A stretch of DNA of 6,473 nt from Candidatus Sulfotelmatobacter sp. (GTDB taxonomy: Bacteria > Acidobacteriota > Terriglobia > Terriglobales > Acidobacteriaceae), in assembly GCA_030049565.1 (NCBI GenBank), contig JASIKQ010000390.1:1-6473 (forward strand), written 5' to 3'. The notes under the pieces are model-generated. The model had not been told where the DNA came from. It saw nothing but the letters and a program-made list of their open reading frames with translations, and did no database searches. Within the stretch, counting starts at the first letter, position 1; the number at the start of each line of letters is the position of its first letter. Positions 1-6,473 of this stretch are shown one piece after another. The translations under genes were made by a program, and so were the position numbers.

Positions 1-1
1 G

Positions 2-103
2 CACGGTCTGTCTCCGATGTGGCATGATGCGGGCTACGATGCAGCCGCGTCCTACTACGCGTGGCGATTCCTTGTTGCCGTGTTGCATGGAGCCCCGTGG
101 TGA
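2..103 (+). CDS. C-terminal end of an unidentified protein (5' truncated)
   Basis: An open frame enters from the left edge (first whole codon at base 2) and ends at TGA 101-103, giving 33 residues. It begins HGLSPMWHDAGYDAA and ends VAVLHGAPW. The fragment is rich in Trp, Tyr and Ala and has no recognisable motif. The main support is positional: its stop overlaps the GTG start of the next gene as GTGA, the same arrangement seen at most junctions further along. A longer frame in the same place (24-350) crosses two better-supported genes and is probably a shadow. Function unknown. Too little is visible to exclude a chance open frame. Confidence 0.5.
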   Translation, partial: HGLSPMWHDAGYDAAASYYAWRFLVAVLHGAPW

Positions 104-324
104 CCGCGTTTACATGGACCATCTGGGATACGCTCATCGCCATTGCGGGAGCATGCGCGATGATGTCGCTACTCTTCCGCTGGCTTGCCGTTCGGCACGA
201 CCCCGCTGCGCGGGAGCGTGCCCGCGCCCAACGTCGCTGGTGGATGCGATGGTCCATGCGCTACGTGCTGCCCGCGGCAGTGCTGGTGGGTCTGATTGGC
301 TGGGCGCTCACGAGGGTGAAGTAG
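100..324 (+). CDS. small two-helix membrane protein, unknown function
   Basis: A 74-residue protein with two hydrophobic segments at about residues 4-30 and 55-71. They are separated by a strongly basic stretch (VRHDPAARERARAQRRWW) that should stay on the cytoplasmic side, so both ends would face outward if both helices span the membrane. GTG 100 was chosen because it has GGAG at 89-92 with a 7-base spacer and forms a GTGA overlap with the upstream stop; GTG 97 and GTG 61 are alternatives in frame. The gene ends with TAG directly abutting the next ATG. In a virus such a protein could be a membrane or virion component, or a holin-like protein. Nothing in the sequence decides between these. Confidence 0.65.
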   Translation: MTAFTWTIWDTLIAIAGACAMMSLLFRWLAVRHDPAARERARAQRRWWMRWSMRYVLPAAVLVGLIGWALTRVK

Positions 325-666
325 ATGGGGTTCATCGGCGACCGTCTTAAGGCGGCTAAGGCCGCTGAGGATTACGTCAAGCATATCGTTTACCCGAAGG
401 AGGTAGACCCCGACCAGATTAAGAAGGCTAAGCGGTCTCTGGAACGGACCGTTTACGAAGGATTCATGGCGGGGTTGAAGAGCGAAGACCCTGTCTCTCC
501 GTGGCGAGAATTCCAAGGCAAGTTCTGGGCCGCCGTTGTGAAGGAGGGTAAGCAGGATGACCCCGATGCTGCGCGCGCGTTGGAGAACCTCAAGCGCGCC
601 TGGGTCTACGGGTTCTGTCGCGCGCGGGGCATCCCCAATCGTCCGTTTGGTGAGGGCAGACCATGA
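325..666 (+). CDS. hypothetical soluble helical protein (113 aa)
   Basis: A 113-residue protein starting at ATG 325, immediately after the preceding stop, with a strong Shine-Dalgarno match GAGGGTGA at 312-319 and a 5-base spacer. It is lysine- and alanine-rich and probably mostly helical, with amphipathic stretches around residues 1-25, 30-55 and 65-100. There are no membrane segments, no cysteine pairs (one Cys at 98) and no recognised motif. The basic surface (KKAKRSLER, LKRAWVYGFCRAR) would suit a nucleic-acid or protein-binding accessory factor, but this is a guess. The stop overlaps the next start as ATGA. Function unknown; the gene itself is well supported by its ribosome site and overlaps. 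Confidence 0.75.
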   Translation: MGFIGDRLKAAKAAEDYVKHIVYPKEVDPDQIKKAKRSLERTVYEGFMAGLKSEDPVSPWREFQGKFWAAVVKEGKQDDPDAARALENLKRAWVYGFCRARGIPNRPFGEGRP

Positions 667-839
667 AGCGCATCCATGATGTGCGCGTTAACTGGAACGT
701 CGCTCACATTCACTTGTGGCTTGACAATTTAGAGATGTGCCTGCAATTGGCTCCGAGTAGACGTGATGGCAAAGGCATGCGTTTCCGCAAAGCGCTGTTC
801 AAAGACCACAGCGAGCCAGGGGCCTGGGTGTGGGTATGA
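663..839 (+). CDS. hypothetical small protein (58 aa)
   Basis: A 58-residue frame that begins MKRIHDVRVNWNVAHIH and ends SEPGAWVWV. It exactly fills the space between two better-supported genes and shares ATGA overlaps at both ends (ATG 663/TGA 666 and ATG 836/TGA 839). GGTGAGGG at 649-656 sits 6 bases before the start and is a good Shine-Dalgarno sequence. The product is basic, with several His and Trp residues and a single Cys, and lacks a hydrophobic helix long enough to span a membrane. No family is recognised. Small size lowers certainty, but position and ribosome site make it likely to be real. Confidence 0.65.
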   Translation: MKRIHDVRVNWNVAHIHLWLDNLEMCLQLAPSRRDGKGMRFRKALFKDHSEPGAWVWV

Positions 840-1261
840 AGATTCGGTTCGTTAAACCTCCTGAGTGGACGGAACCAGAAACGTGGGGCGAGATACTGCG
901 GGGCATTCCCGTCCCATCGAAGCTGCGCGCGCGGATGGTGAGACTTCGAGAGTTCATTGCATCACCTGGATTTCGGAACGACCGTAGAATCTGGATGCGG
1001 GATTACGCGCTGGAAGAATTAGCGGCCATACGTCTCGAAGCCTACTGGGAAGTGTATCGGGTGCTCTGTGCACGGCGGGACCAGGCGGGTTTCGACGCAT
1101 CGAAACGGTGGGTTAAGGCCGATGCGGCCGAAACCACCGCTGAGTTGTATGAGACGCTCAGCATGTCCATCCCACGAAGACCGAAGGAAACGATGGCTCG
1201 CTACATCAGACGCATTAAAGACGTTCGCGCTTCCCTGCTCAAAAATGCCGAGGGATTCTAA
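836..1261 (+). CDS. hypothetical basic helical protein (141 aa)
   Basis: A 141-residue protein starting at ATG 836, where the start overlaps the preceding stop as ATGA; GTG 830 in frame is an alternative that adds two residues. No strong Shine-Dalgarno sequence is visible (a G-rich stretch lies just upstream), so translation may depend on coupling to the upstream gene. The protein is rich in Arg, Glu and Ala and looks largely helical from residue 25 on, with a long helix around 55-80 (YALEELAAIRLEAYWEVYR) and another around 115-137. It has one cysteine and no membrane segment. I do not recognise a family. It ends in TAATG, sharing one base with the next gene. Confidence 0.75.
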   Translation: MKIRFVKPPEWTEPETWGEILRGIPVPSKLRARMVRLREFIASPGFRNDRRIWMRDYALEELAAIRLEAYWEVYRVLCARRDQAGFDASKRWVKADAAETTAELYETLSMSIPRRPKETMARYIRRIKDVRASLLKNAEGF

Positions 1262-1803
1262 TGCCGCGTAAACGCACGCCCGTTGAACCGTCTCTCTCGA
1301 AAGACCAGCAAATCCTCCTGCTCCGCCGTGAGATTGAACGGTTACAGGAAGCTAACGCCATGTTGTCGGCCCGTGAAGTTTCGCCGCAGGACATGGGCAT
1401 CTTCGGCCGTGTATCGCTCACTCGGGCTCGGGATACGGACTTCCCCGAGTTCGTGCGAGCAATCGACGTCTGGCCCACCGTGTATCGGACCTACGGCCTT
1501 TCGGCTGCTTATGCCTATGGGGACCACTGCAAGTCGCTGATGCATGCTCTCGCCGTTAAGGCTGGTATCACCCCAGACCTCATTCGTGCCGTGCACCGCT
1601 TAGAGATGTTCTACTCTGAACCTGACATCTGGTTGATGTGCGGTGCTTGCGGGAGTGACATCGCTGCCCGTCGAAGACGTCGCAAACTCATCCACTTGGT
1701 TGAGGAATACATCTACGCTCCGTCCATCAAAGCGGCTTTCGACCGCAGCACGGAAACCCCTGGTGGACTGCTGTCTCCGACCCTGGGTGGAGGGTCGAAT
1801 TGA
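1261..1803 (+). CDS. hypothetical protein with N-terminal coiled coil (180 aa)
   Basis: A 180-residue protein starting at ATG 1261 (TAATG overlap) with GAGGGA at 1250-1255 and a 5-base spacer. Residues 1-12 are basic (MPRKRTP). Residues 15-40 form a likely coiled coil (QQILLLRREIERLQEANAML). Residues 60-165 look like a globular helical domain containing a lone CGAC pair (Cys127, Cys130) followed by a run of five Arg and a Lys at 137-142. The tail is Gly/Ser/Thr-rich and probably disordered. A coiled coil plus a basic patch would suit an oligomeric nucleic-acid-binding protein, but no family is recognised and a second metal-ligand pair is not visible. Its last codons contain the ribosome site and stem for the next frame. 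Confidence 0.75.
   Translation: MPRKRTPVEPSLSKDQQILLLRREIERLQEANAMLSAREVSPQDMGIFGRVSLTRARDTDFPEFVRAIDVWPTVYRTYGLSAAYAYGDHCKSLMHALAVKAGITPDLIRAVHRLEMFYSEPDIWLMCGACGSDIAARRRRRKLIHLVEEYIYAPSIKAAFDRSTETPGGLLSPTLGGGSN
1789..1794 (+). promoter_or_regulatory. Shine-Dalgarno sequence supporting a TTG start at 1800
   Basis: GGAGGG lies 5 bases before TTG 1800. The same GAGGG-type core and the same 5-base spacing precede the starts at 325 and 1261. This is the main sequence evidence that the frame 1800-2012 is translated even though it uses a rare start codon. Confidence 0.5.
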
Positions 1804-1818
1804 ACGCTCTGTTCGACC
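1793..1818 (+). promoter_or_regulatory. 7-bp stem-loop over the stop/start junction at 1800
   Basis: GGTCGAA at 1793-1799 can pair with TTCGACC at 1812-1818, leaving a 12-base loop that holds the TTG start and TGA stop. The same TTCGACC can alternatively pair with a second GGTCGAA at 1855-1861. Two mutually exclusive stems over a start site could modulate reinitiation; this is inference from pairing alone. Confidence 0.35.
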
Positions 1819-2012
1819 GCTCTTTTGGACCAGAGCAAGAGCGCTTTGGGGAGGGGTCGAAAAGAGCCTGTTTTACCGTCGGTAGACGACAGGTCTCGAC
1901 GGGGCGCTCTTCTGCGCCCGTTTCGCTCCCCCACCAGAGCACCAGAGCACCGAGCGTATCTTTGATGTATCCGAGCCCTATACGAACTCCCCGCGGGGAG
2001 TGGGTAAAATGA
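1800..2012 (+). CDS. possible small protein (70 aa) filling the only sizeable gap
   Basis: A 70-residue frame from TTG 1800 to TGA 2012. For: a strong Shine-Dalgarno sequence with 5-base spacing, a TTGA overlap with the previous stop, and an ATGA overlap with the ATPase start, so it fits the arrangement of its neighbours at both ends. Against: a rare start codon, a Ser/Arg/Pro-rich composition with no domain or hydrophobic core, and a DNA sequence dominated by AGAGC repeats and hairpins that suggest a non-coding role. If real it may mainly serve to carry ribosomes through the palindrome at the ATPase ribosome site. If not, 1804-2008 is a 205-base regulatory or origin-like gap. Confidence 0.4.
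   Translation: MNALFDRSFGPEQERFGEGSKRACFTVGRRQVSTGRSSAPVSLPHQSTRAPSVSLMYPSPIRTPRGEWVK
1806..1948. repeat. cluster of AGAGC/GCTCT repeats in both orientations
   Basis: The pentamer AGAGC or its complement GCTCT occurs eight times in 143 bases, at 1806, 1819, 1832, 1838, 1863, 1906, 1936 and 1944 (start positions); fewer than one would be expected by chance. Three copies extend to ACCAGAGCA (1829-1837, 1933-1941, 1941-1949 as ACCAGAGCA/ACCAGAGCAC), the last two in tandem. Longer inverted pairs include GCTCTTTT 1819-1826 with AAAAGAGC 1860-1867, and AAGAGCGC 1837-1844 with GCGCTCTT 1904-1911. This is the only such cluster I see in the window. It could be iterons of an origin, operator sites (possibly for the downstream ATPase-HTH protein), or structured RNA. 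Confidence 0.55.
1899..1923 (+). other. GC-rich hairpin followed by TTT (terminator-like or attenuator)
   Basis: ACGGGGCGC at 1899-1907 pairs with GCGCCCGT at 1914-1921 with one bulged G, around the loop TCTTCT, and is followed by a short TTT. It resembles a weak intrinsic terminator, but the T tract is only three bases and the dense + strand operon continues beyond it. An attenuator or structured RNA element is at least as likely. Confidence 0.35.
1986..2001. promoter_or_regulatory. 16-bp perfect palindrome over the ATPase ribosome binding site
   Basis: ACTCCCCGCGGGGAGT is its own reverse complement. In RNA it can fold as a 6-bp GC-rich stem with a CGCG loop. The right arm contains GGGGAG (1995-2000), the best Shine-Dalgarno candidate for ATG 2009 (8-base spacer). 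Ribosome access would then depend on melting, for instance by translation of the frame 1800-2012 that runs across it. As DNA it could also be a dimeric repressor site. Confidence 0.5.
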
Positions 2013-3226
2013 ATCCCACGATTAACTCTCGAAAGCGGTCGGAGCAACGCGAAGAGTTGTCGGGAAGCCTCGATTCGCTGATGGATTTGCGGCCACCGAA
2101 GGCGTTTACGATGGACAGCCTCGTAGCCATCGAGAAGGCCCAAGTCGCGCCGTTATCCAGCATAACACAGGCCGCCGAGTTCGGAAAGTTGGTAAGGGTC
2201 CGCAGCCGTGGCATCTTTCGCGGTCCCGCTCCGATGTTGCCCGAGGAAGGATTCGACTACTGGTGTTCCTACATCCTCGAACGGTGCCTTCAGGACTACG
2301 ACGCCTGCGTGATTTTTACAGGTGAAACTGGTTCGGGGAAGTCGACCCTGGCCCTTCAGGCCGCTCGGACGGTAGACCCCGAGTTCAACCTACGGACAGA
2401 CCTGTGCTACACGGCGAGCGCCCTCAAGGACATCTATCGACAGCGCTCGGAAAACCCCGCGGCCTCGCGGGGCCGTGTGGTGGTGTTCGATGAAGGAGTG
2501 CGCGGGTTGCTGGCGGGAGACCAGAACACCGATGAGCAGAAGGACACCGTGAAGATGCTCGCGCTGGTGCGCGCTCTTAACGTTCCGCTGTTCATCTGCG
2601 TTCCCGACATCTGGCGCCTCGCCAAACCCGTGCGGGAGAATCGCGCGTGCCTGTGGATTCACGTTACACGGCGGGGACGTGCTCTCGTCCATGTCCGCCG
2701 CGAGCGCATCCAATACGACAAGAACAGCGACCTCGGTTTCGATGTGGCTACCGAATGCCCATGGGTGACGTGGGACCGCTTCGATGACAACGACCCGTTC
2801 TGGAAACTCTACATGGTCGTTAAGATGCAGCGTCTTAACGAATACTTCCGCGAGAAGCAGCGTTCCCGCGGGAAGGGCCATACCACGGACGCTCAGGTTG
2901 AGGAGTCGCTGCGGAAGCACGCCACCATCGCCGACCTGCTCCGTGATGGGATGTCGCAGCGGCAGGTCATCAAACGAACAGGGGCTTCTTGGGACCTCGT
3001 GAGCAAGGTGAACCGTGAGTTGAAGGACCAGGCTGTCGCTGCTGAGCCTGTCGTGCTCTCGACGTCCACAACCGCATCCGCACCGAAACGAAAGGCCAAT
3101 GCGGCGGGACTGCGCAACTGGGATAGGCGCGAGAAGCGGAAGACGCGCACGGCCGTGCTGGCCGAGGGTCGCAAACAATTCACACGCTCGCTGGGTAAAG
3201 TCCACCCAGCAGGACCGTCGCTATGA
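2009..3226 (+). CDS. P-loop ATPase with C-terminal helix-turn-helix
   Basis: A 405-residue protein. ATG 2009 was chosen over GTG 2000 because GGGGAG lies 8 bases before it and it gives an ATGA overlap. Walker A is GETGSGKST at residues 105-113 (Lys111). Walker B is VVVFDE, with Asp161 and catalytic Glu162, followed by helix-forming DEQKDTVKMLALVRALN and PLFICVPDIWRLAKPVREN, a layout typical of RecA/FtsK/HerA- or Zot-like NTPases rather than ABC proteins. Residues about 305-338 form a helix-turn-helix (ADLLRDGMSQRQVIKRTGAS...), and the tail from about 350 is basic and probably disordered. Plausible roles are DNA translocation or packaging, replication initiation or partition; the HTH suggests site-specific DNA contact. 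The stop overlaps the next start as ATGA. The ATPase call is secure, the exact family is not. Confidence 0.8.
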   Translation: MNPTINSRKRSEQREELSGSLDSLMDLRPPKAFTMDSLVAIEKAQVAPLSSITQAAEFGKLVRVRSRGIFRGPAPMLPEEGFDYWCSYILERCLQDYDACVIFTGETGSGKSTLALQAARTVDPEFNLRTDLCYTASALKDIYRQRSENPAASRGRVVVFDEGVRGLLAGDQNTDEQKDTVKMLALVRALNVPLFICVPDIWRLAKPVRENRACLWIHVTRRGRALVHVRRERIQYDKNSDLGFDVATECPWVTWDRFDDNDPFWKLYMVVKMQRLNEYFREKQRSRGKGHTTDAQVEESLRKHATIADLLRDGMSQRQVIKRTGASWDLVSKVNRELKDQAVAAEPVVLSTSTTASAPKRKANAAGLRNWDRREKRKTRTAVLAEGRKQFTRSLGKVHPAGPSL

Positions 3227-3378
3227 CGCATACGCGACAGCCGCGCGTTGGTCCTATCTGCCCTGTATGCAAGGTGCCGCTGTTCATGCACTTCGTGTTC
3301 GTTCACCAGTGGTCCGCACGTGCGGCCGTCCGTTCGGGGTTATCTTCTCGTCCCTGCTTCGAGATACAGGTCCGTTGA
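3223..3378 (+). CDS. putative mini zinc-binding protein (51 aa)
   Basis: A 51-residue frame starting at ATG 3223 (ATGA overlap with the ATPase stop) with AGGA at 3211-3214 and an 8-base spacer. It contains CPVC at residues 13-16 followed by His23 and His28 (C-x2-C-x6-H-x4-H), and a further Cys45. The spacing is shorter than a classical C2H2 finger but could hold one zinc ion, a common design in small viral regulators. The segment between the ligands is hydrophobic (LFMHFVFVH). Its end forms TGATG with the next start. Function unknown; possibly a regulator or adaptor working with the ATPase or polymerase on either side. Confidence 0.5.
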   Translation: MTHTRQPRVGPICPVCKVPLFMHFVFVHQWSARAAVRSGLSSRPCFEIQVR

Positions 3379-3485
3379 TGAGCCACAAACCACAAGCGTC
3401 GCTTAGAGCGATAGGCCCCAGTCCCCAAAGGACGGGTGTCCTGAACAGACATAGCACGGAGATGAACCCCGTGCGTGTCGGCTGA
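3378..3485 (+). CDS. possible miniprotein (35 aa) leading into the polymerase gene
   Basis: A 35-residue frame starting at ATG 3378, sharing one base with the preceding stop (TGATG), with AGGT at 3368-3371 and a 6-base spacer. The peptide (MSHKPQASLRAIGPSPQ... to ...NPVRVG) is basic, Ser/Pro-rich and has no fold signature. It ends 11 bases inside the polymerase gene, so it may be a coupling leader that brings ribosomes to the weakly placed polymerase start. A longer frame ending at the same stop begins inside the ATPase gene and is less likely. Low confidence because of its length and bland composition. Confidence 0.35.
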   Translation: MSHKPQASLRAIGPSPQRTGVLNRHSTEMNPVRVG

Positions 3486-5802
3486 GCAACCGCATCGTTG
3501 GGTATATTCCCGTGACGACGTTCCGTCCACGGAAGCGTTCGACACGGAAACCTACAAGGGCATTCTCAAGGTCGTCTGCACGCCGACCGAGTTCTTCGAG
3601 CCTATCGGGCCGCCGAAGTCGGAGATGCGCGCCCTCACACTGCTCGATTGGTTGTGGGAGCATACACGTGAGGTCAACTGGTTGTGGAACCTCGCGTTCG
3701 ACCGAGATGTCATCCTGCGCACTGTGCTCGAACCGATGCTCGCCAAGGAAGAAGCACATATCGAAACCGATGAGGATGACGATGAGGTCGGCTCATTCCT
3801 CGTGGAACATGTGCTCCACTTCCATGACTATATCATCAAGACCGTCGGCTCGAAGTCGTGGTCCATACAACGAAAGGGCTCGAAGCAGAAGCGGACGTTC
3901 TTCGATGCGGGTGTGTTCTATCGGACCGAGAACGAAAGGTCGGTCCCGCTCGACACGGCCGCACATGAGGTGCTCGGCTTCGGGAAGAACGCCGAAGAGC
4001 TTGGCATTGACCGTGTCAGAATCGGAACCGAGGAAGGCTACTATGAAGCTCATCGCGACCTCATCATCAAATATTGTATGCGGGATAGCGAACTCACGAA
4101 GAAGCTCGGCGATGGGTTGTTCCCTATCGCCAAAGACGCTCTCGGCTTCTACCCGCGCCGCTGGGCATCACCCGCATCGCTGGCGAAAGCGTGGCTCGAA
4201 CGGCACGCCGAGGATTTGATGACGCGACAGCGAGGCCCCCGCAACCAGCACGACCCGTTCCACCACTGCTACCGAGGCGGCATCTTCACTTCTCAACTTG
4301 GCCTCGTCGAGAATGTTGATGAGGTCGACATCGTGAACGCCTACGGCTCCGCCCTCTTGCACATGCCCAAGCTCTCCGACCTCACCGAACCCGTCCGCAC
4401 GGACCGCTACTCGTCCGATGCCGTGATGGGCAGCTACTACATCCTCATCGACTACGATGGGCGTTTGCCCGCGCGCAAACAGGACGCGCTCGGCCTGCCG
4501 CTGAGGCCCGAGAAGAAGGAGATAGAACGCATCATTTATCCGAACTCACGCGGCAAGCTGCGCCCGTATTACGCCGACCGCGTCGAGATGGAGTTCTTCA
4601 TTGAACGCGGACGACGGTTCGAGATTCTGATGGCCCACGAGATGTTCCCGCGCGACCCGAATAAGAAGGTAGGACTTCAGTTCCCGCAACTATCGCGAAT
4701 CCTTCAACGGGTCGCCGAGCTTAAGGCAGCGGCTAAGAAGGGCGACGTGCGCGCGAAGATGGTGCGGACGTTCTTAAAGGCGGTCGTGAACTCGACGTAT
4801 GGGGCTACCGCCGAAGCGAAATTCGGCGAGACGCCGTTCACGAACTGGGTCGCAGCCTCGTTCATCACTGCCTGGTGCCGACGCCTCATCTGGCGCGAAT
4901 GGGCGGCCATCGAAGATGCTGGGGGTAAGGTCATCTCGGTCAATACGGACAGTATACGGTATATAGCTGGGAAATATCGCGTTCCCGTTACCCAACATGG
5001 AGAGATAGGAAAGTTCGAGTTCAAGTTCACTCGCTGCGAGACCATCCACTACCAATCAGGCATCGCCATCGTGAGGCATCGCAAAGGACACGATGAGACC
5101 TGTGGTGAGTGCAAGACGCTGCCACGCCTCTGCCAGCGTAATGGCCGTTGGGAACTACATCCCGCCGACTGTGCATGCTGCGTAAACGACGGTTTCGGCG
5201 CCTACGTCCGAAAGCGCGGACTGCCCGCTCTCACAGCAGACATGTTGATGAACCAACGTGGAACCGAGCTTAAGGTTCCCATCAAGCGCGCTCTCCATTA
5301 CACTGAGGGGCTCATCCAGGACCGCATGAACGAGGTCGGCGATATCTGCGGGCCGCGCGATGAGAAGGATGGGGTCAAGTGGCGTCCCATTAGGCTGGAC
5401 GCGAACCTGGCAGTATTCGATATCGACCCGAACCTGCTTAAGTTCGAGGTGCTGTGTCGACAGCCCGTTCCATGCCTTCCTCCTGCCTATGACGATGTGA
5501 TGTTCGGCGGCTGGCGCGAGGACCGCACTGAGTTGCGCCGCGACCTGTTCGGGACCAACCCGACCGTCGACATGACGCGCATGAAGGAGACGGCCCGTTG
5601 GGTGCAGACGGTGGCTCCTGAATGCACCCCCGAGCTTGTGGCCTCCGACCTTGGAGACTGTGGTCTGCCGTTCACTCCAGGTATCGTCACGCCTCCCCGC
5701 GGACCGAGACCTACGAAGCTGCTGCGAGAGACGGTGTTCCCTCCGCCAATCAGCGGAACAACGAGACACGTCCCGAAGATGGAACCTGAGAGGTCGCGGT
5801 GA
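3475..5802 (+). CDS. family B DNA polymerase, archaeal virus/mobile-element type, with 3'-5' exonuclease
   Basis: A 775-residue replicative polymerase. GTG 3475 is the only reasonable start, since TGA at 3463 closes the frame upstream; GGAG at 3458-3461 is rather far away (13 bases). Exonuclease domain: ExoI DTE (Asp23, Glu25), ExoII WNLAFD (Asn72, Asp76), ExoIII YCMRD (Tyr200, Asp204), so proofreading should be active. A YRGG motif (266-269) links to the polymerase domain. Motif A is DIVNAYGS (Asp285), motif B is KAVVNSTYG (435-443), motif C is NTDS (490-493). The 150-residue A-B spacing leaves room for a TPR1-type insertion, hence probable protein priming, but no terminal protein gene is visible here. 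A cysteine cluster (Cys543, 546, 553, 566, 568, 569) follows the palm, and the tail is Pro-rich. The motif C Asn is unusual. Confidence 0.9.
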   Translation: MSAEQPHRWVYSRDDVPSTEAFDTETYKGILKVVCTPTEFFEPIGPPKSEMRALTLLDWLWEHTREVNWLWNLAFDRDVILRTVLEPMLAKEEAHIETDEDDDEVGSFLVEHVLHFHDYIIKTVGSKSWSIQRKGSKQKRTFFDAGVFYRTENERSVPLDTAAHEVLGFGKNAEELGIDRVRIGTEEGYYEAHRDLIIKYCMRDSELTKKLGDGLFPIAKDALGFYPRRWASPASLAKAWLERHAEDLMTRQRGPRNQHDPFHHCYRGGIFTSQLGLVENVDEVDIVNAYGSALLHMPKLSDLTEPVRTDRYSSDAVMGSYYILIDYDGRLPARKQDALGLPLRPEKKEIERIIYPNSRGKLRPYYADRVEMEFFIERGRRFEILMAHEMFPRDPNKKVGLQFPQLSRILQRVAELKAAAKKGDVRAKMVRTFLKAVVNSTYGATAEAKFGETPFTNWVAASFITAWCRRLIWREWAAIEDAGGKVISVNTDSIRYIAGKYRVPVTQHGEIGKFEFKFTRCETIHYQSGIAIVRHRKGHDETCGECKTLPRLCQRNGRWELHPADCACCVNDGFGAYVRKRGLPALTADMLMNQRGTELKVPIKRALHYTEGLIQDRMNEVGDICGPRDEKDGVKWRPIRLDANLAVFDIDPNLLKFEVLCRQPVPCLPPAYDDVMFGGWREDRTELRRDLFGTNPTVDMTRMKETARWVQTVAPECTPELVASDLGDCGLPFTPGIVTPPRGPRPTKLLRETVFPPPISGTTRHVPKMEPERSR

Positions 5803-5987
5803 AGAAGCACTCAGACGCCACGCGTATCGTGAATCGGCAGCCACGGTATTGCCCGACATGCGGGATGTCGCGGCCGATGATGCGGTTCATACAATTCTCA
5901 TCGCTGGTGGAAGGATGGCTCATCGGACTGGCGACGATTGGACTGATGCTGTTGCTGTTCAGCGGTATTATCTGGCAGTGGCTATGA
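5799..5987 (+). CDS. single-pass membrane miniprotein with CPTC knuckle (62 aa)
   Basis: A 62-residue protein starting at GTG 5799, which overlaps the polymerase stop as GTGA and has GAGAGGT at 5788-5794 just upstream. A basic N-terminal part carries one zinc-knuckle half, YCPTCG (Cys18, Cys21). A hydrophobic segment at about residues 36-61 (IGLATIGLMLLLFSGII) should span the membrane, leaving the Cys pair in the cytoplasm by the positive-inside rule. One CxxC cannot complete a zinc site, so dimerisation is a possibility. The stop overlaps the next ATG as ATGA. Function unknown; perhaps a membrane anchor or small virion/envelope component. Confidence 0.65.
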   Translation: MKKHSDATRIVNRQPRYCPTCGMSRPMMRFIQFSSLVEGWLIGLATIGLMLLLFSGIIWQWL

Positions 5988-6133
5988 AACCGAATCAGAC
6001 CCCCGAATACGTAGCCTCGCGCATCCCGAACGAGTTAGAGCGTCTCGCACTTCGCGCTCTCATCGTGTTGGGGTCGCTATCGGCAGCAGCTATCGTGTTC
6101 GGTTTGCTGGTGGTATGGAGAATACTTCCGTGA
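5984..6133 (+). CDS. single-pass membrane miniprotein (49 aa)
   Basis: A 49-residue protein from ATG 5984 (ATGA overlap) to TGA 6133. The first 22 residues are polar (MKPNQTPEYVASRIPNELER), then a hydrophobic segment at about 23-45 (ALIVLGSLSAAAIVFGLLVVW) forms one membrane helix and the chain ends RILP. There is no good Shine-Dalgarno sequence, so it probably relies on reinitiation after the preceding gene. The same frame is open further upstream inside the polymerase gene, but that extension would overlap two better-supported genes. Together with its neighbour it forms a pair of membrane miniproteins just before a membrane glycosyltransferase. Function unknown. Confidence 0.6.
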   Translation: MKPNQTPEYVASRIPNELERLALRALIVLGSLSAAAIVFGLLVVWRILP

Positions 6134-6159
6134 TACCTCCGCGATACCACTGCCAATGA
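6130..6159 (+). CDS. possible 9-residue leader peptide before the glycosyltransferase
   Basis: GTG 6130 overlaps the preceding stop (GTGA), and its own stop TGA 6157-6159 overlaps the glycosyltransferase ATG (ATGA). GGAG at 6117-6120 lies 9 bases before it. The peptide would be MIPPRYHCQ. The glycosyltransferase start itself has no ribosome site, so a coupling leader is plausible. It is far too short to be secure. Confidence 0.25.
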   Translation: MIPPRYHCQ

Positions 6160-6473
6160 TAGCGCTATGGCTATGGGTGATGTGGACGGCGGTCGTGCTG
6201 GTGCTACTACAACTATTCGTGTTGCTCTACTTCCCATTGGCTGTTAGTCAGACGATACTGCTGCTACGATGGTGGCTACGACCTGACCCCCACATTCTGT
6301 CTCCTGCCGCACCAGGTAGACGCGTCCGAGTGGTCATCTGCACGAACGGCAAGGCGACCACGGTCGTCCAGCATCTTATCCACACCATCGAGTCCTATGC
6401 CCTGTGGCCGCGAGTGAGCGTCTACGTGCTCTGCGAACAATACGATAACTTCGCTTACGACGCTCCGTCCATC
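6156..6473 (+). CDS. membrane-anchored family 2 glycosyltransferase (3' truncated)
   Basis: The frame from ATG 6156 stays open to the window edge, giving the first 106 residues. Residues 1-37 are strongly hydrophobic (one or two membrane helices), followed by a basic WWLRPDP linker. A GT-A type nucleotide-sugar-binding start then appears: the first strand VRVVICTNG at 57-65, a helix TTVVQHLIHTIESY, and a second strand VSVYVLCEQYD at 87-97. This resembles membrane GT2 enzymes of the chitin/hyaluronan-synthase-like or egghead-like kind, which transfer sugars at the cytoplasmic face. The catalytic DxD and QxxRW motifs lie beyond the edge, so activity cannot be judged. GTG 6177 and ATG 6180 are alternative starts. 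It may modify host surface glycans or virion proteins. Confidence 0.7.
   Translation, partial: MIALWLWVMWTAVVLVLLQLFVLLYFPLAVSQTILLLRWWLRPDPHILSPAAPGRRVRVVICTNGKATTVVQHLIHTIESYALWPRVSVYVLCEQYDNFAYDAPSI

What the first reader, a model, noticed from the sequence alone, without database searches (positions are those of the whole stretch)
1..6473. GATC, CTAG, GTAC and CCGG are all completely absent
Scanning every GAT, ATC, TAG, TAC and CGG context by eye, I found no GATC, CTAG, GTAC or CCGG in 6473 bases. Base composition predicts roughly 24 each for the first three and about 45 for CCGG. GCGC, CGCG, GGCC, TCGA, CATG, AGCT and AATT are present, so this is not general palindrome avoidance. The pattern fits long-term pressure from several 4-bp type II restriction systems, and no methyltransferase is visible here that would protect the sites. 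From memory, the methanogen Methanocaldococcus jannaschii carries restriction-modification systems for CTAG, GATC, GTAC and CCGG; the coincidence suggests an archaeal, possibly methanogen-like, host with a similar set, though this GC content does not fit that species.
Basis: partly seen in the sequence, partly recalled or inferred. Interest (0 to 1): 0.8.

Follow-up and report, generated by a model that had tools for sequence, protein, structure and literature searches.

The report
Archaeal-type virus purged four restriction sites
This 6.5-kb stretch of DNA, likely part of a virus that infects archaea, contains not one copy of four common four-letter palindromes (GATC, CTAG, GTAC, CCGG), likely because enzymes in its hosts would cut it there; the escape trick is known, but losing four sites together is an unusually clean case.

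Summary
GATC, CTAG, GTAC and CCGG each occur 0 times in 6473 b, and they are the only absent 4-mers of 256 (dinucleotide expectation 39, 13, 16, 42). Codon usage and protein sequence do not explain it: 2000 synonymous shuffles give means of 32, 6, 17 and 37, and codon choice flips at the contexts that would make a site. The bacterial bin holding the window does not share it: each of the 13 readable contigs (of 20 fetched, of 699) contains all four words.

The window looks like a mis-binned virus fragment. It encodes a protein-primed DNA polymerase and an ATPase; by profile comparison both match the archaeal spindle-shaped virus His1 better than the other viruses tried (His2 and phi29; His2 and PRD1). 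Best explanation: long-term selection by 4-bp type II restriction systems of archaeal hosts. This is a known kind of event: HF1-group haloviruses lack GATC and CTAG (PMC7230728, passages). I found no report of this set of four in my searches. The Methanocaldococcus link is not supported. The host and its enzymes remain unidentified.

The parts
1..6473 (.). Whole contig (G000:C681) free of GATC, CTAG, GTAC and CCGG
61..324 (+). 87-aa predicted protein with two hydrophobic stretches (by eye), no family
   Evidence: BLASTP with His1 ORF21 not significant
325..666 (+). 113-aa predicted protein, no family
830..1261 (+). 143-aa predicted protein, no family above chance
1261..1803 (+). 180-aa predicted protein; two relatives at 76-77% identity in the protein database, function unknown
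2000..3226 (+). P-loop ATPase with a C-terminal helix-turn-helix-like part, phrog_5484 (DnaA-like); profile matches His1 ORF16
3475..5802 (+). 775-aa family-B DNA polymerase of the protein-primed type; fold nearest phi29 polymerase in the PDB, profile nearest His1 of the three viruses compared
5799..5987 (+). 62-aa predicted membrane protein with CxxC
   Evidence: BLASTP with His1 ORF21 not significant
6156..6473 (+). Start of a membrane protein cut off by the contig end; by eye it resembles the start of a glycosyltransferase, not confirmed by any family search

Best explanation
The contig holds no GATC, CTAG, GTAC or CCGG, likely because it is part of an archaeal, His1-like virus whose hosts' 4-bp type II restriction enzymes would cut those sites, so that copies keeping a site were lost. 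Shown: the exact absence of these four words and of no other 4-mer, in coding and non-coding DNA; synonymous codon choice that switches where a site would form; all four words present in each of the 13 readable bin contigs; a protein-primed polymerase and an ATPase whose profiles match His1 proteins. Inferred: that the force is restriction; that the enzymes read 4 bp (a 6-bp enzyme would leave most contexts standing); that the host is an archaeon outside the bin. Unknown: the host, its enzymes, and whether one host carries all four systems or several hosts share them.
For: Only these four of 256 4-mers are absent. Synonymous shuffles restore them. Codon steering, as k of n: Ile ATC 0 of 15 after a codon ending in G against 61 of 79 elsewhere; Pro CCG 0 of 39 before G against 43 of 70; Asp GAT 0 of 35 before C against 35 of 73; Arg CGG 0 of 43 after C against 43 of 143; Tyr TAC 0 of 7 after G against 36 of 48 (Fisher P 2e-4 to 4e-12). 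Bin contigs: none of 13 lacks a palindrome expected 5 times or more. Archaeal virus: polymerase profile against His1 533 columns E 4.7e-19, His2 263 columns E 9.7e-17, phi29 152 columns E 1.9e-5; ATPase profile against His1 ORF16 E 1.5e-14, His2 ORF33 0.008, PRD1 P9 0.006; the ATPase's only hit in 50,697 phage records is an Archaeoglobus virus at E 0.002; the one named genome relative of the polymerase is in a Thermoplasmata archaeon. Precedent: HF1-group viruses lack GATC and CTAG (PMC7230728, passages); avoidance of type II sites is widespread in dsDNA viruses (PMC6286503, passages).
Against: No host and no restriction gene was identified. CTAG is low in the bin as well (64 vs 130) and its absence here is the least extreme. 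Steering is weak for the rare codons GTA (P 0.06) and CTA (P 0.02). The polymerase relative P0018 also hits one bacterial phage (Microbacterium Badulia), so the archaeal host is a likelihood only. No capsid gene was matched to His1. The ATPase fold also matches many general P-loop proteins. The window's GC (0.589) lies within the range of the bin contigs (0.553-0.604). Sister contigs could not be counted.
Confidence: 0.72

Rival explanations
1. The bin's own bacterium is the host, and its restriction systems shaped a resident phage or plasmid.
For: The contig was binned with that genome, and its GC (0.589) is within the range of the 13 readable bin contigs (0.553-0.604).
Against: No PF02086, PF01555 or PF00145 methyltransferase match in the bin (the bin is 72.6% complete and some contigs read as N, so this is weak). 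No relative of the polymerase in 60 genomes searched as relatives, and in 395 others of the phylum only one 114-residue match at E 5e-4. The viral genes match archaeal-virus proteins.
Confidence: 0.1
2. The words are avoided because of a viral or host process other than restriction endonucleases: methylation-dependent (type IV) or phosphorothioate-based defence, or mutational decay of methylated sites.
For: Methyl- and modification-dependent systems that act at GATC are discussed for haloarchaea (PMC7230728, passages). A mixture of defences could stand behind four words.
Against: Decay of methylated cytosine would turn CCGG into CTGG/CCAG; these are not the main gainers (CTGG 45 vs 31.4, CCAG 21 vs 21.6, while CCGT is 53 vs 32.8 and CCGA 60 vs 44.5), and it would not remove GATC and GTAC to zero. 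Systems of other types are rarely avoided in viruses (PMC6286503, passages).
Confidence: 0.13
3. Chance, or a laboratory or assembly artefact such as a library step that favours site-free DNA.
For: None found; a restriction-based library step could in principle favour site-free DNA.
Against: Poisson chances of 10^-5.8 to 10^-18 per word; synonymous shuffles; the readable contigs of the same bin contain the sites; codon steering shows evolved avoidance.
Confidence: 0.02

Closest known systems
HF1-group haloviruses (HF1, HF2, Serpecor1, Hardycor2; PMC7230728, passages)
   Same: Archaeal dsDNA viruses in which palindromic tetramers are wholly absent (GATC and CTAG in all seven isolates); the authors ascribe it to host defences. 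In the first 14 kb of HF2 up to four palindromes are missing in a 6473-b stretch.
   Different: Large tailed viruses of halophiles; GTAC and CCGG are present at near-normal frequency in the HF2 stretch counted (33/46, 110/96). Here GTAC and CCGG are absent and TGCA and CATG are not.
His1 virus (Halspiviridae, Salterprovirus)
   Same: Polymerase profile match over 533 columns; ATPase matches His1 ORF16; His1 lacks CTAG.
   Different: His1 is AT-rich (GC 0.389) and keeps GATC, GTAC and CCGG (18, 20, 30 copies). No small membrane protein tested here matches His1 ORF21. The window's termini are unknown.
His2 virus (gammapleolipovirus)
   Same: Polymerase profile match; lacks CTAG and GATC.
   Different: Its ATPase (ORF33) does not match; GTAC and CCGG are present (74 and 33 copies).
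Family 1 casposons
   Same: Protein-primed polymerase of the His1/His2/casposon clade (PMC4046053, passages); the one named genome relative found sits in an element with Cas1.
   Different: No Cas1 among the window's scanned frames, and no strong terminal inverted repeats found in the window, which is partial.

Membership tests
Restriction-site avoidance by a virus under type II restriction | Sites depleted far below compositional expectation | tested here: met
   0 against 39, 13, 16, 42; synonymous shuffles
Restriction-site avoidance by a virus under type II restriction | Depletion specific to palindromic words, others untouched | tested here: met
   Only four of 256 4-mers absent; other words at least partly kept
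Restriction-site avoidance by a virus under type II restriction | Host with matching restriction enzymes | tested here: inconclusive
   Host unknown; the bin gave no match to three methyltransferase families but is incomplete and bacterial
Halspiviridae (His1-like viruses) | Protein-primed family-B polymerase homologous to His1 | tested here: met
   533 columns, E 4.7e-19; control phi29 152 columns, E 1.9e-5
Halspiviridae (His1-like viruses) | ATPase homologous to His1 ORF16 | tested here: met
   E 1.5e-14; controls His2 ORF33 0.008 and PRD1 P9 0.006
Halspiviridae (His1-like viruses) | Major capsid protein (His1 ORF21, role recalled) | tested here: not met
   Two small membrane proteins of the window gave E 0.47 and 8.1 by BLASTP; the contig is partial, so the gene may lie outside. 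Membership is not claimed
Halspiviridae (His1-like viruses) | Linear genome with terminal inverted repeats | not testable with these tools
   At least the right end is cut inside a reading frame
Methanocaldococcus jannaschii-like restriction set | Its further specificities GGNCC and GTNNAC (recalled) also avoided | tested here: not met
   39 vs 34.2 and 35 vs 23.4
Casposon (family 1) | Cas1 gene in the element | tested here: not met
   No Cas1 in 9 reading frames scanned with Pfam; the contig is partial

The most novel reading that the evidence does not exclude
An uncultured lineage of high-GC archaeal viruses, outside the halophiles, with a His1-type polymerase and ATPase has erased the targets of at least four 4-bp restriction systems at once. 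The avoided set is a readable fingerprint that could name its still unknown archaeal host, one carrying GATC, CTAG, GTAC and CCGG systems together.
Probability: 0.4. Interest if true: 0.62.

Novelty: new member of a known kind. Interest (0 to 1): 0.46.

Why it matters
If true, a virus fragment that lacks four words and keeps every other 4-mer records in its own sequence which restriction enzymes its hosts use. That makes host prediction from avoided words testable for uncultured archaeal viruses. It also extends complete multi-site purging, described for haloviruses, to a different virus lineage, and shows that in coding DNA the cost can be paid by synonymous codon choice.

Tried and rejected
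Rejected: general palindrome avoidance (12 of 16 palindromes present at 6-75 copies); codon usage or protein sequence as the cause; a wider avoided set. GANTC, GTNAC and CCNGG looked low (17/34.6, 8/23.4, 14/34.2), but in 400 synonymous shuffles that already forbid the four words they are not clearly so (P 0.11, 0.07, 0.06). TTNNAA (2 vs 8.4), CTNNAG, GGNNNCC and ATNAT stayed low among 48 gapped palindromes; unexplained. Rejected: the Methanocaldococcus-like set.

Led nowhere: viral-contig scans with the polymerase and the ATPase gave no relative; tblastn of the polymerase in phage and plasmid records gave none. The 59-63% relatives P0002-P0005 have no DNA reachable here (metagenome scans capped at 0), so the avoidance could not be tested in sister genomes. 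CRISPR search: window DNA against the bin (17 matches besides itself at E up to 10, best 0.01) and 389 genomes of the relative's phylum (5 of 389 genomes at E 7e-5 to 9e-4); of these, the best bin match and the five others (six loci) were checked and none lies in a regular repeat array. Profile A4 in the same 389 genomes: 216 had a match, one strong (the casposon genome G061, E 1e-175); the next best is 2.6e-11. The listed rest are mostly short matches in the palm region and look to me like cellular polymerases; the list was cut and I did not inspect them one by one, nor G425 (672-aa frame). PDB fold search of the ATPase gave only general P-loop matches. Pfam gave no match for the polymerase itself. 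Rfam and tRNA searches of the window were empty. Literature: looked for joint avoidance of these words; I saw listings, and passages of PMC7230728, PMC6286503, PMC2745766 and PMC4046053; no paper was read whole. None of what I saw reports this set of four.
Full report
CHECK OF THE OBSERVATION. The window (6473 b, GC 0.589) contains no GATC, CTAG, GTAC or CCGG, and these are the only 4-mers of 256 that are absent. Dinucleotide expectations are 39.1, 13.3, 15.8 and 41.5, with Poisson chances of zero from 10^-5.8 to 10^-18. The 12 other palindromic tetramers occur 6 to 75 times. Of 400 five- and six-letter words and 1467 gapped words tested with expectation of 8 or more, none is wholly absent. 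Milder deficits of GANTC, GTNAC and CCNGG are not clear once the null already forbids the four words (P 0.06-0.11).

HOW IT IS ACHIEVED. Shuffling synonymous codons 2000 times keeps the proteins and the codon usage, yet brings back on average 32.1 GATC, 36.6 CCGG, 16.5 GTAC and 5.8 CTAG; zero was never reached for the first three and in about 0.1% of shuffles for CTAG. The real genes switch codons where a site would arise. Isoleucine uses ATC in 61 of 79 cases but in 0 of 15 after a codon ending in G; proline uses CCG in 43 of 70 but in 0 of 39 before G; aspartate uses GAT in 35 of 73 but in 0 of 35 before C; arginine uses CGG in 43 of 143 but in 0 of 43 after C; tyrosine uses TAC in 36 of 48 but in 0 of 7 after G (Fisher tests). 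For the rare codons GTA (0 of 39 vs 9 of 95, P 0.06) and CTA (0 of 48 vs 13 of 120, P 0.02) the same test is weak. The 835 non-coding bases are free of the words too. Since all contexts are avoided, the recognised unit is likely the 4-bp word (inference).

WHERE THE CONTIG COMES FROM. The window is contig 681 of a 699-contig, 3.48-Mb bin, 72.6% complete. The bin has ribosomal protein bL20, a family that the same search finds in 10 of 14 control genomes, all bacteria. Of 20 bin contigs fetched, 7 read as N. Each of the 13 readable ones contains all four words, and none lacks a palindrome expected 5 times or more. Pooled: GATC 393 of 363 expected, GTAC 142 of 105, CCGG 491 of 441, CTAG 64 of 130, so CTAG is moderately low in the bin as well. 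Searches of the bin for PF02086, PF01555 and PF00145 methyltransferases gave no match; this is weak, because the bin is incomplete and partly masked. The polymerase has no relative in 60 genomes searched as relatives, and in 395 others of the phylum only one 114-residue match at E 5e-4. The contig is likely foreign to the bin (inference), although its GC lies within the range of the 13 contigs (0.553-0.604).

WHAT IT ENCODES. The gene series I accept lies on the + strand (choice by eye, longest non-overlapping frames). The 775-aa protein at 3475-5802 is a family-B DNA polymerase. Pfam finds nothing at 0.1, but PHROGs does (phrog_11768, E 5e-16); its predicted fold (mean pLDDT 78.9) has phi29 polymerase chains as the nine best PDB matches (TM-score by query 0.43-0.45); and 27 relatives are in the protein database. 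The family profile matches His1 polymerase over 533 columns (E 4.7e-19), His2 over 263 (E 9.7e-17) and phi29 over 152 (E 1.9e-5). A distant relative, P0018, hits 9 phage records: four of Acidianus bottle-shaped viruses, two of His2, two of Hardyhisp2 and one Microbacterium phage. The ATPase at 2000-3226 belongs to phrog_5484, as do all 15 members of its alignment, itself included. Its only hit in 50,697 phage records is the Archaeoglobus virus AvPV1 (E 0.002); a relative, P0040, hits only Haloferax LSV-48N. Its profile matches His1 ORF16 (E 1.5e-14) but not His2 ORF33 (0.008) or PRD1 P9 (0.006). Among viral models its named best match is Acidianus two-tailed virus ORF286 (rank 3, E 1.1e-8, TM-score by query 0.39; ranks 1, 2 and 4 carry no name), followed by many general P-loop proteins. 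These resemblances point to a virus of archaea with a His1-like polymerase and ATPase (inference). Membership of Halspiviridae is not claimed: no capsid gene was matched and the ends are missing.

A CELLULAR RELATIVE. The one relative found in the genome collection (1 of 21 stretches that matched a pattern) lies in a contig titled Thermoplasmata archaeon (L022). It is near genes that I recognise by eye as archaeal RNA polymerase subunits, inside an element with a Cas1 gene (E 3.3e-26) and 94-nt inverted repeats, 95% complementary: a casposon-like element. In 389 genomes of that phylum it is the only strong match. A published tree groups casposon, His1 and His2 polymerases (PMC4046053, passages). 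This supports archaea as home of the polymerase clade but names no host for the window.

MECHANISM. The most likely history is repeated entry into hosts with 4-bp type II restriction systems, so that surviving lineages lost every site; the window shows no methyltransferase of its own. A survey of 3407 viral genomes reports avoidance in dsDNA and ssDNA viruses, stronger in non-temperate phages, and mainly for orthodox type II enzymes (PMC6286503, passages). HF1-group haloviruses lack GATC and CTAG (PMC7230728, passages). Counted here (absent meaning 0 copies with 5 or more expected): His1 lacks CTAG; His2 lacks CTAG and GATC; the first 14 kb of HF2 lacks CTAG, GATC and TGCA, with up to four palindromes missing in one 6473-b stretch; ABV and phi29 (14 kb each) lack two others each; Drs3 (14 kb) lacks GCGC; AvPV1, LSV-48N, MetSV, psiM2 (14 kb) and PRD1 (14 kb) lack none. 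So four is at the top of this comparison of 11 records but not beyond precedent, and GTAC and CCGG are absent from none of the 11. A study of an acid-mine community also describes palindrome avoidance in viruses, including archaeal ones (PMC2745766, passages).

Restriction pressure: supported. Archaeal host: likely. Methanocaldococcus-like host: not supported, since GGNCC and GTNNAC, which I recall as further specificities of that species, are at or above expectation, and the three methanogen viruses counted (psiM2, Drs3, MetSV) keep all four words, though MetSV has only 6 GATC of 29 expected. The restriction genes were not found because the host is unknown.

VERDICT. A real and unusually clean example of a known phenomenon, in what is likely an undescribed archaeal virus lineage. 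The host and its enzymes are the open question.

Noticed in passing
L022:7331-11899 (JAKAVR010000003.1, titled Thermoplasmata archaeon): A compact casposon-like element of about 4.6 kb: Cas1 (7412-8341, minus strand), a protein-primed-type polymerase (9998-11818) and 94-nt inverted repeats at 95%.
   Followed up: partly
P0030 and P0045 (relatives of the ATPase and of the 180-aa protein): Both list a longest contig of 5754 bases, so a sister element with both genes probably exists; that it is the same contig is not shown.
   Followed up: no
P0018 (polymerase relative): Its longest contig is 2,160,791 bases, from NCBI among other sources, so a polymerase of this clade sits in a chromosome-sized record whose organism I could not learn.
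   Followed up: no
window, coding parts: TTNNAA is low (2 against 8.4 in site-free synonymous shuffles, 0 of 400 as low), the strongest remaining deficit among 48 gapped palindromes.
   Followed up: no
G000 bin contigs (13 readable of 20 fetched): The bacterial bin itself is low in CTAG (64 vs 130) and TTAA (79 vs 147).
   Followed up: no
ABV (L030, first 14 kb): ATAT is wholly absent where about 100 are expected, and GGCC where 12 are expected.
   Followed up: no
window 3475-5802, last 74 residues of the protein (702-775): The C-terminal tail is predicted disordered (pLDDT below 50), yet the four 59-63% relatives share much of it.
   Followed up: no
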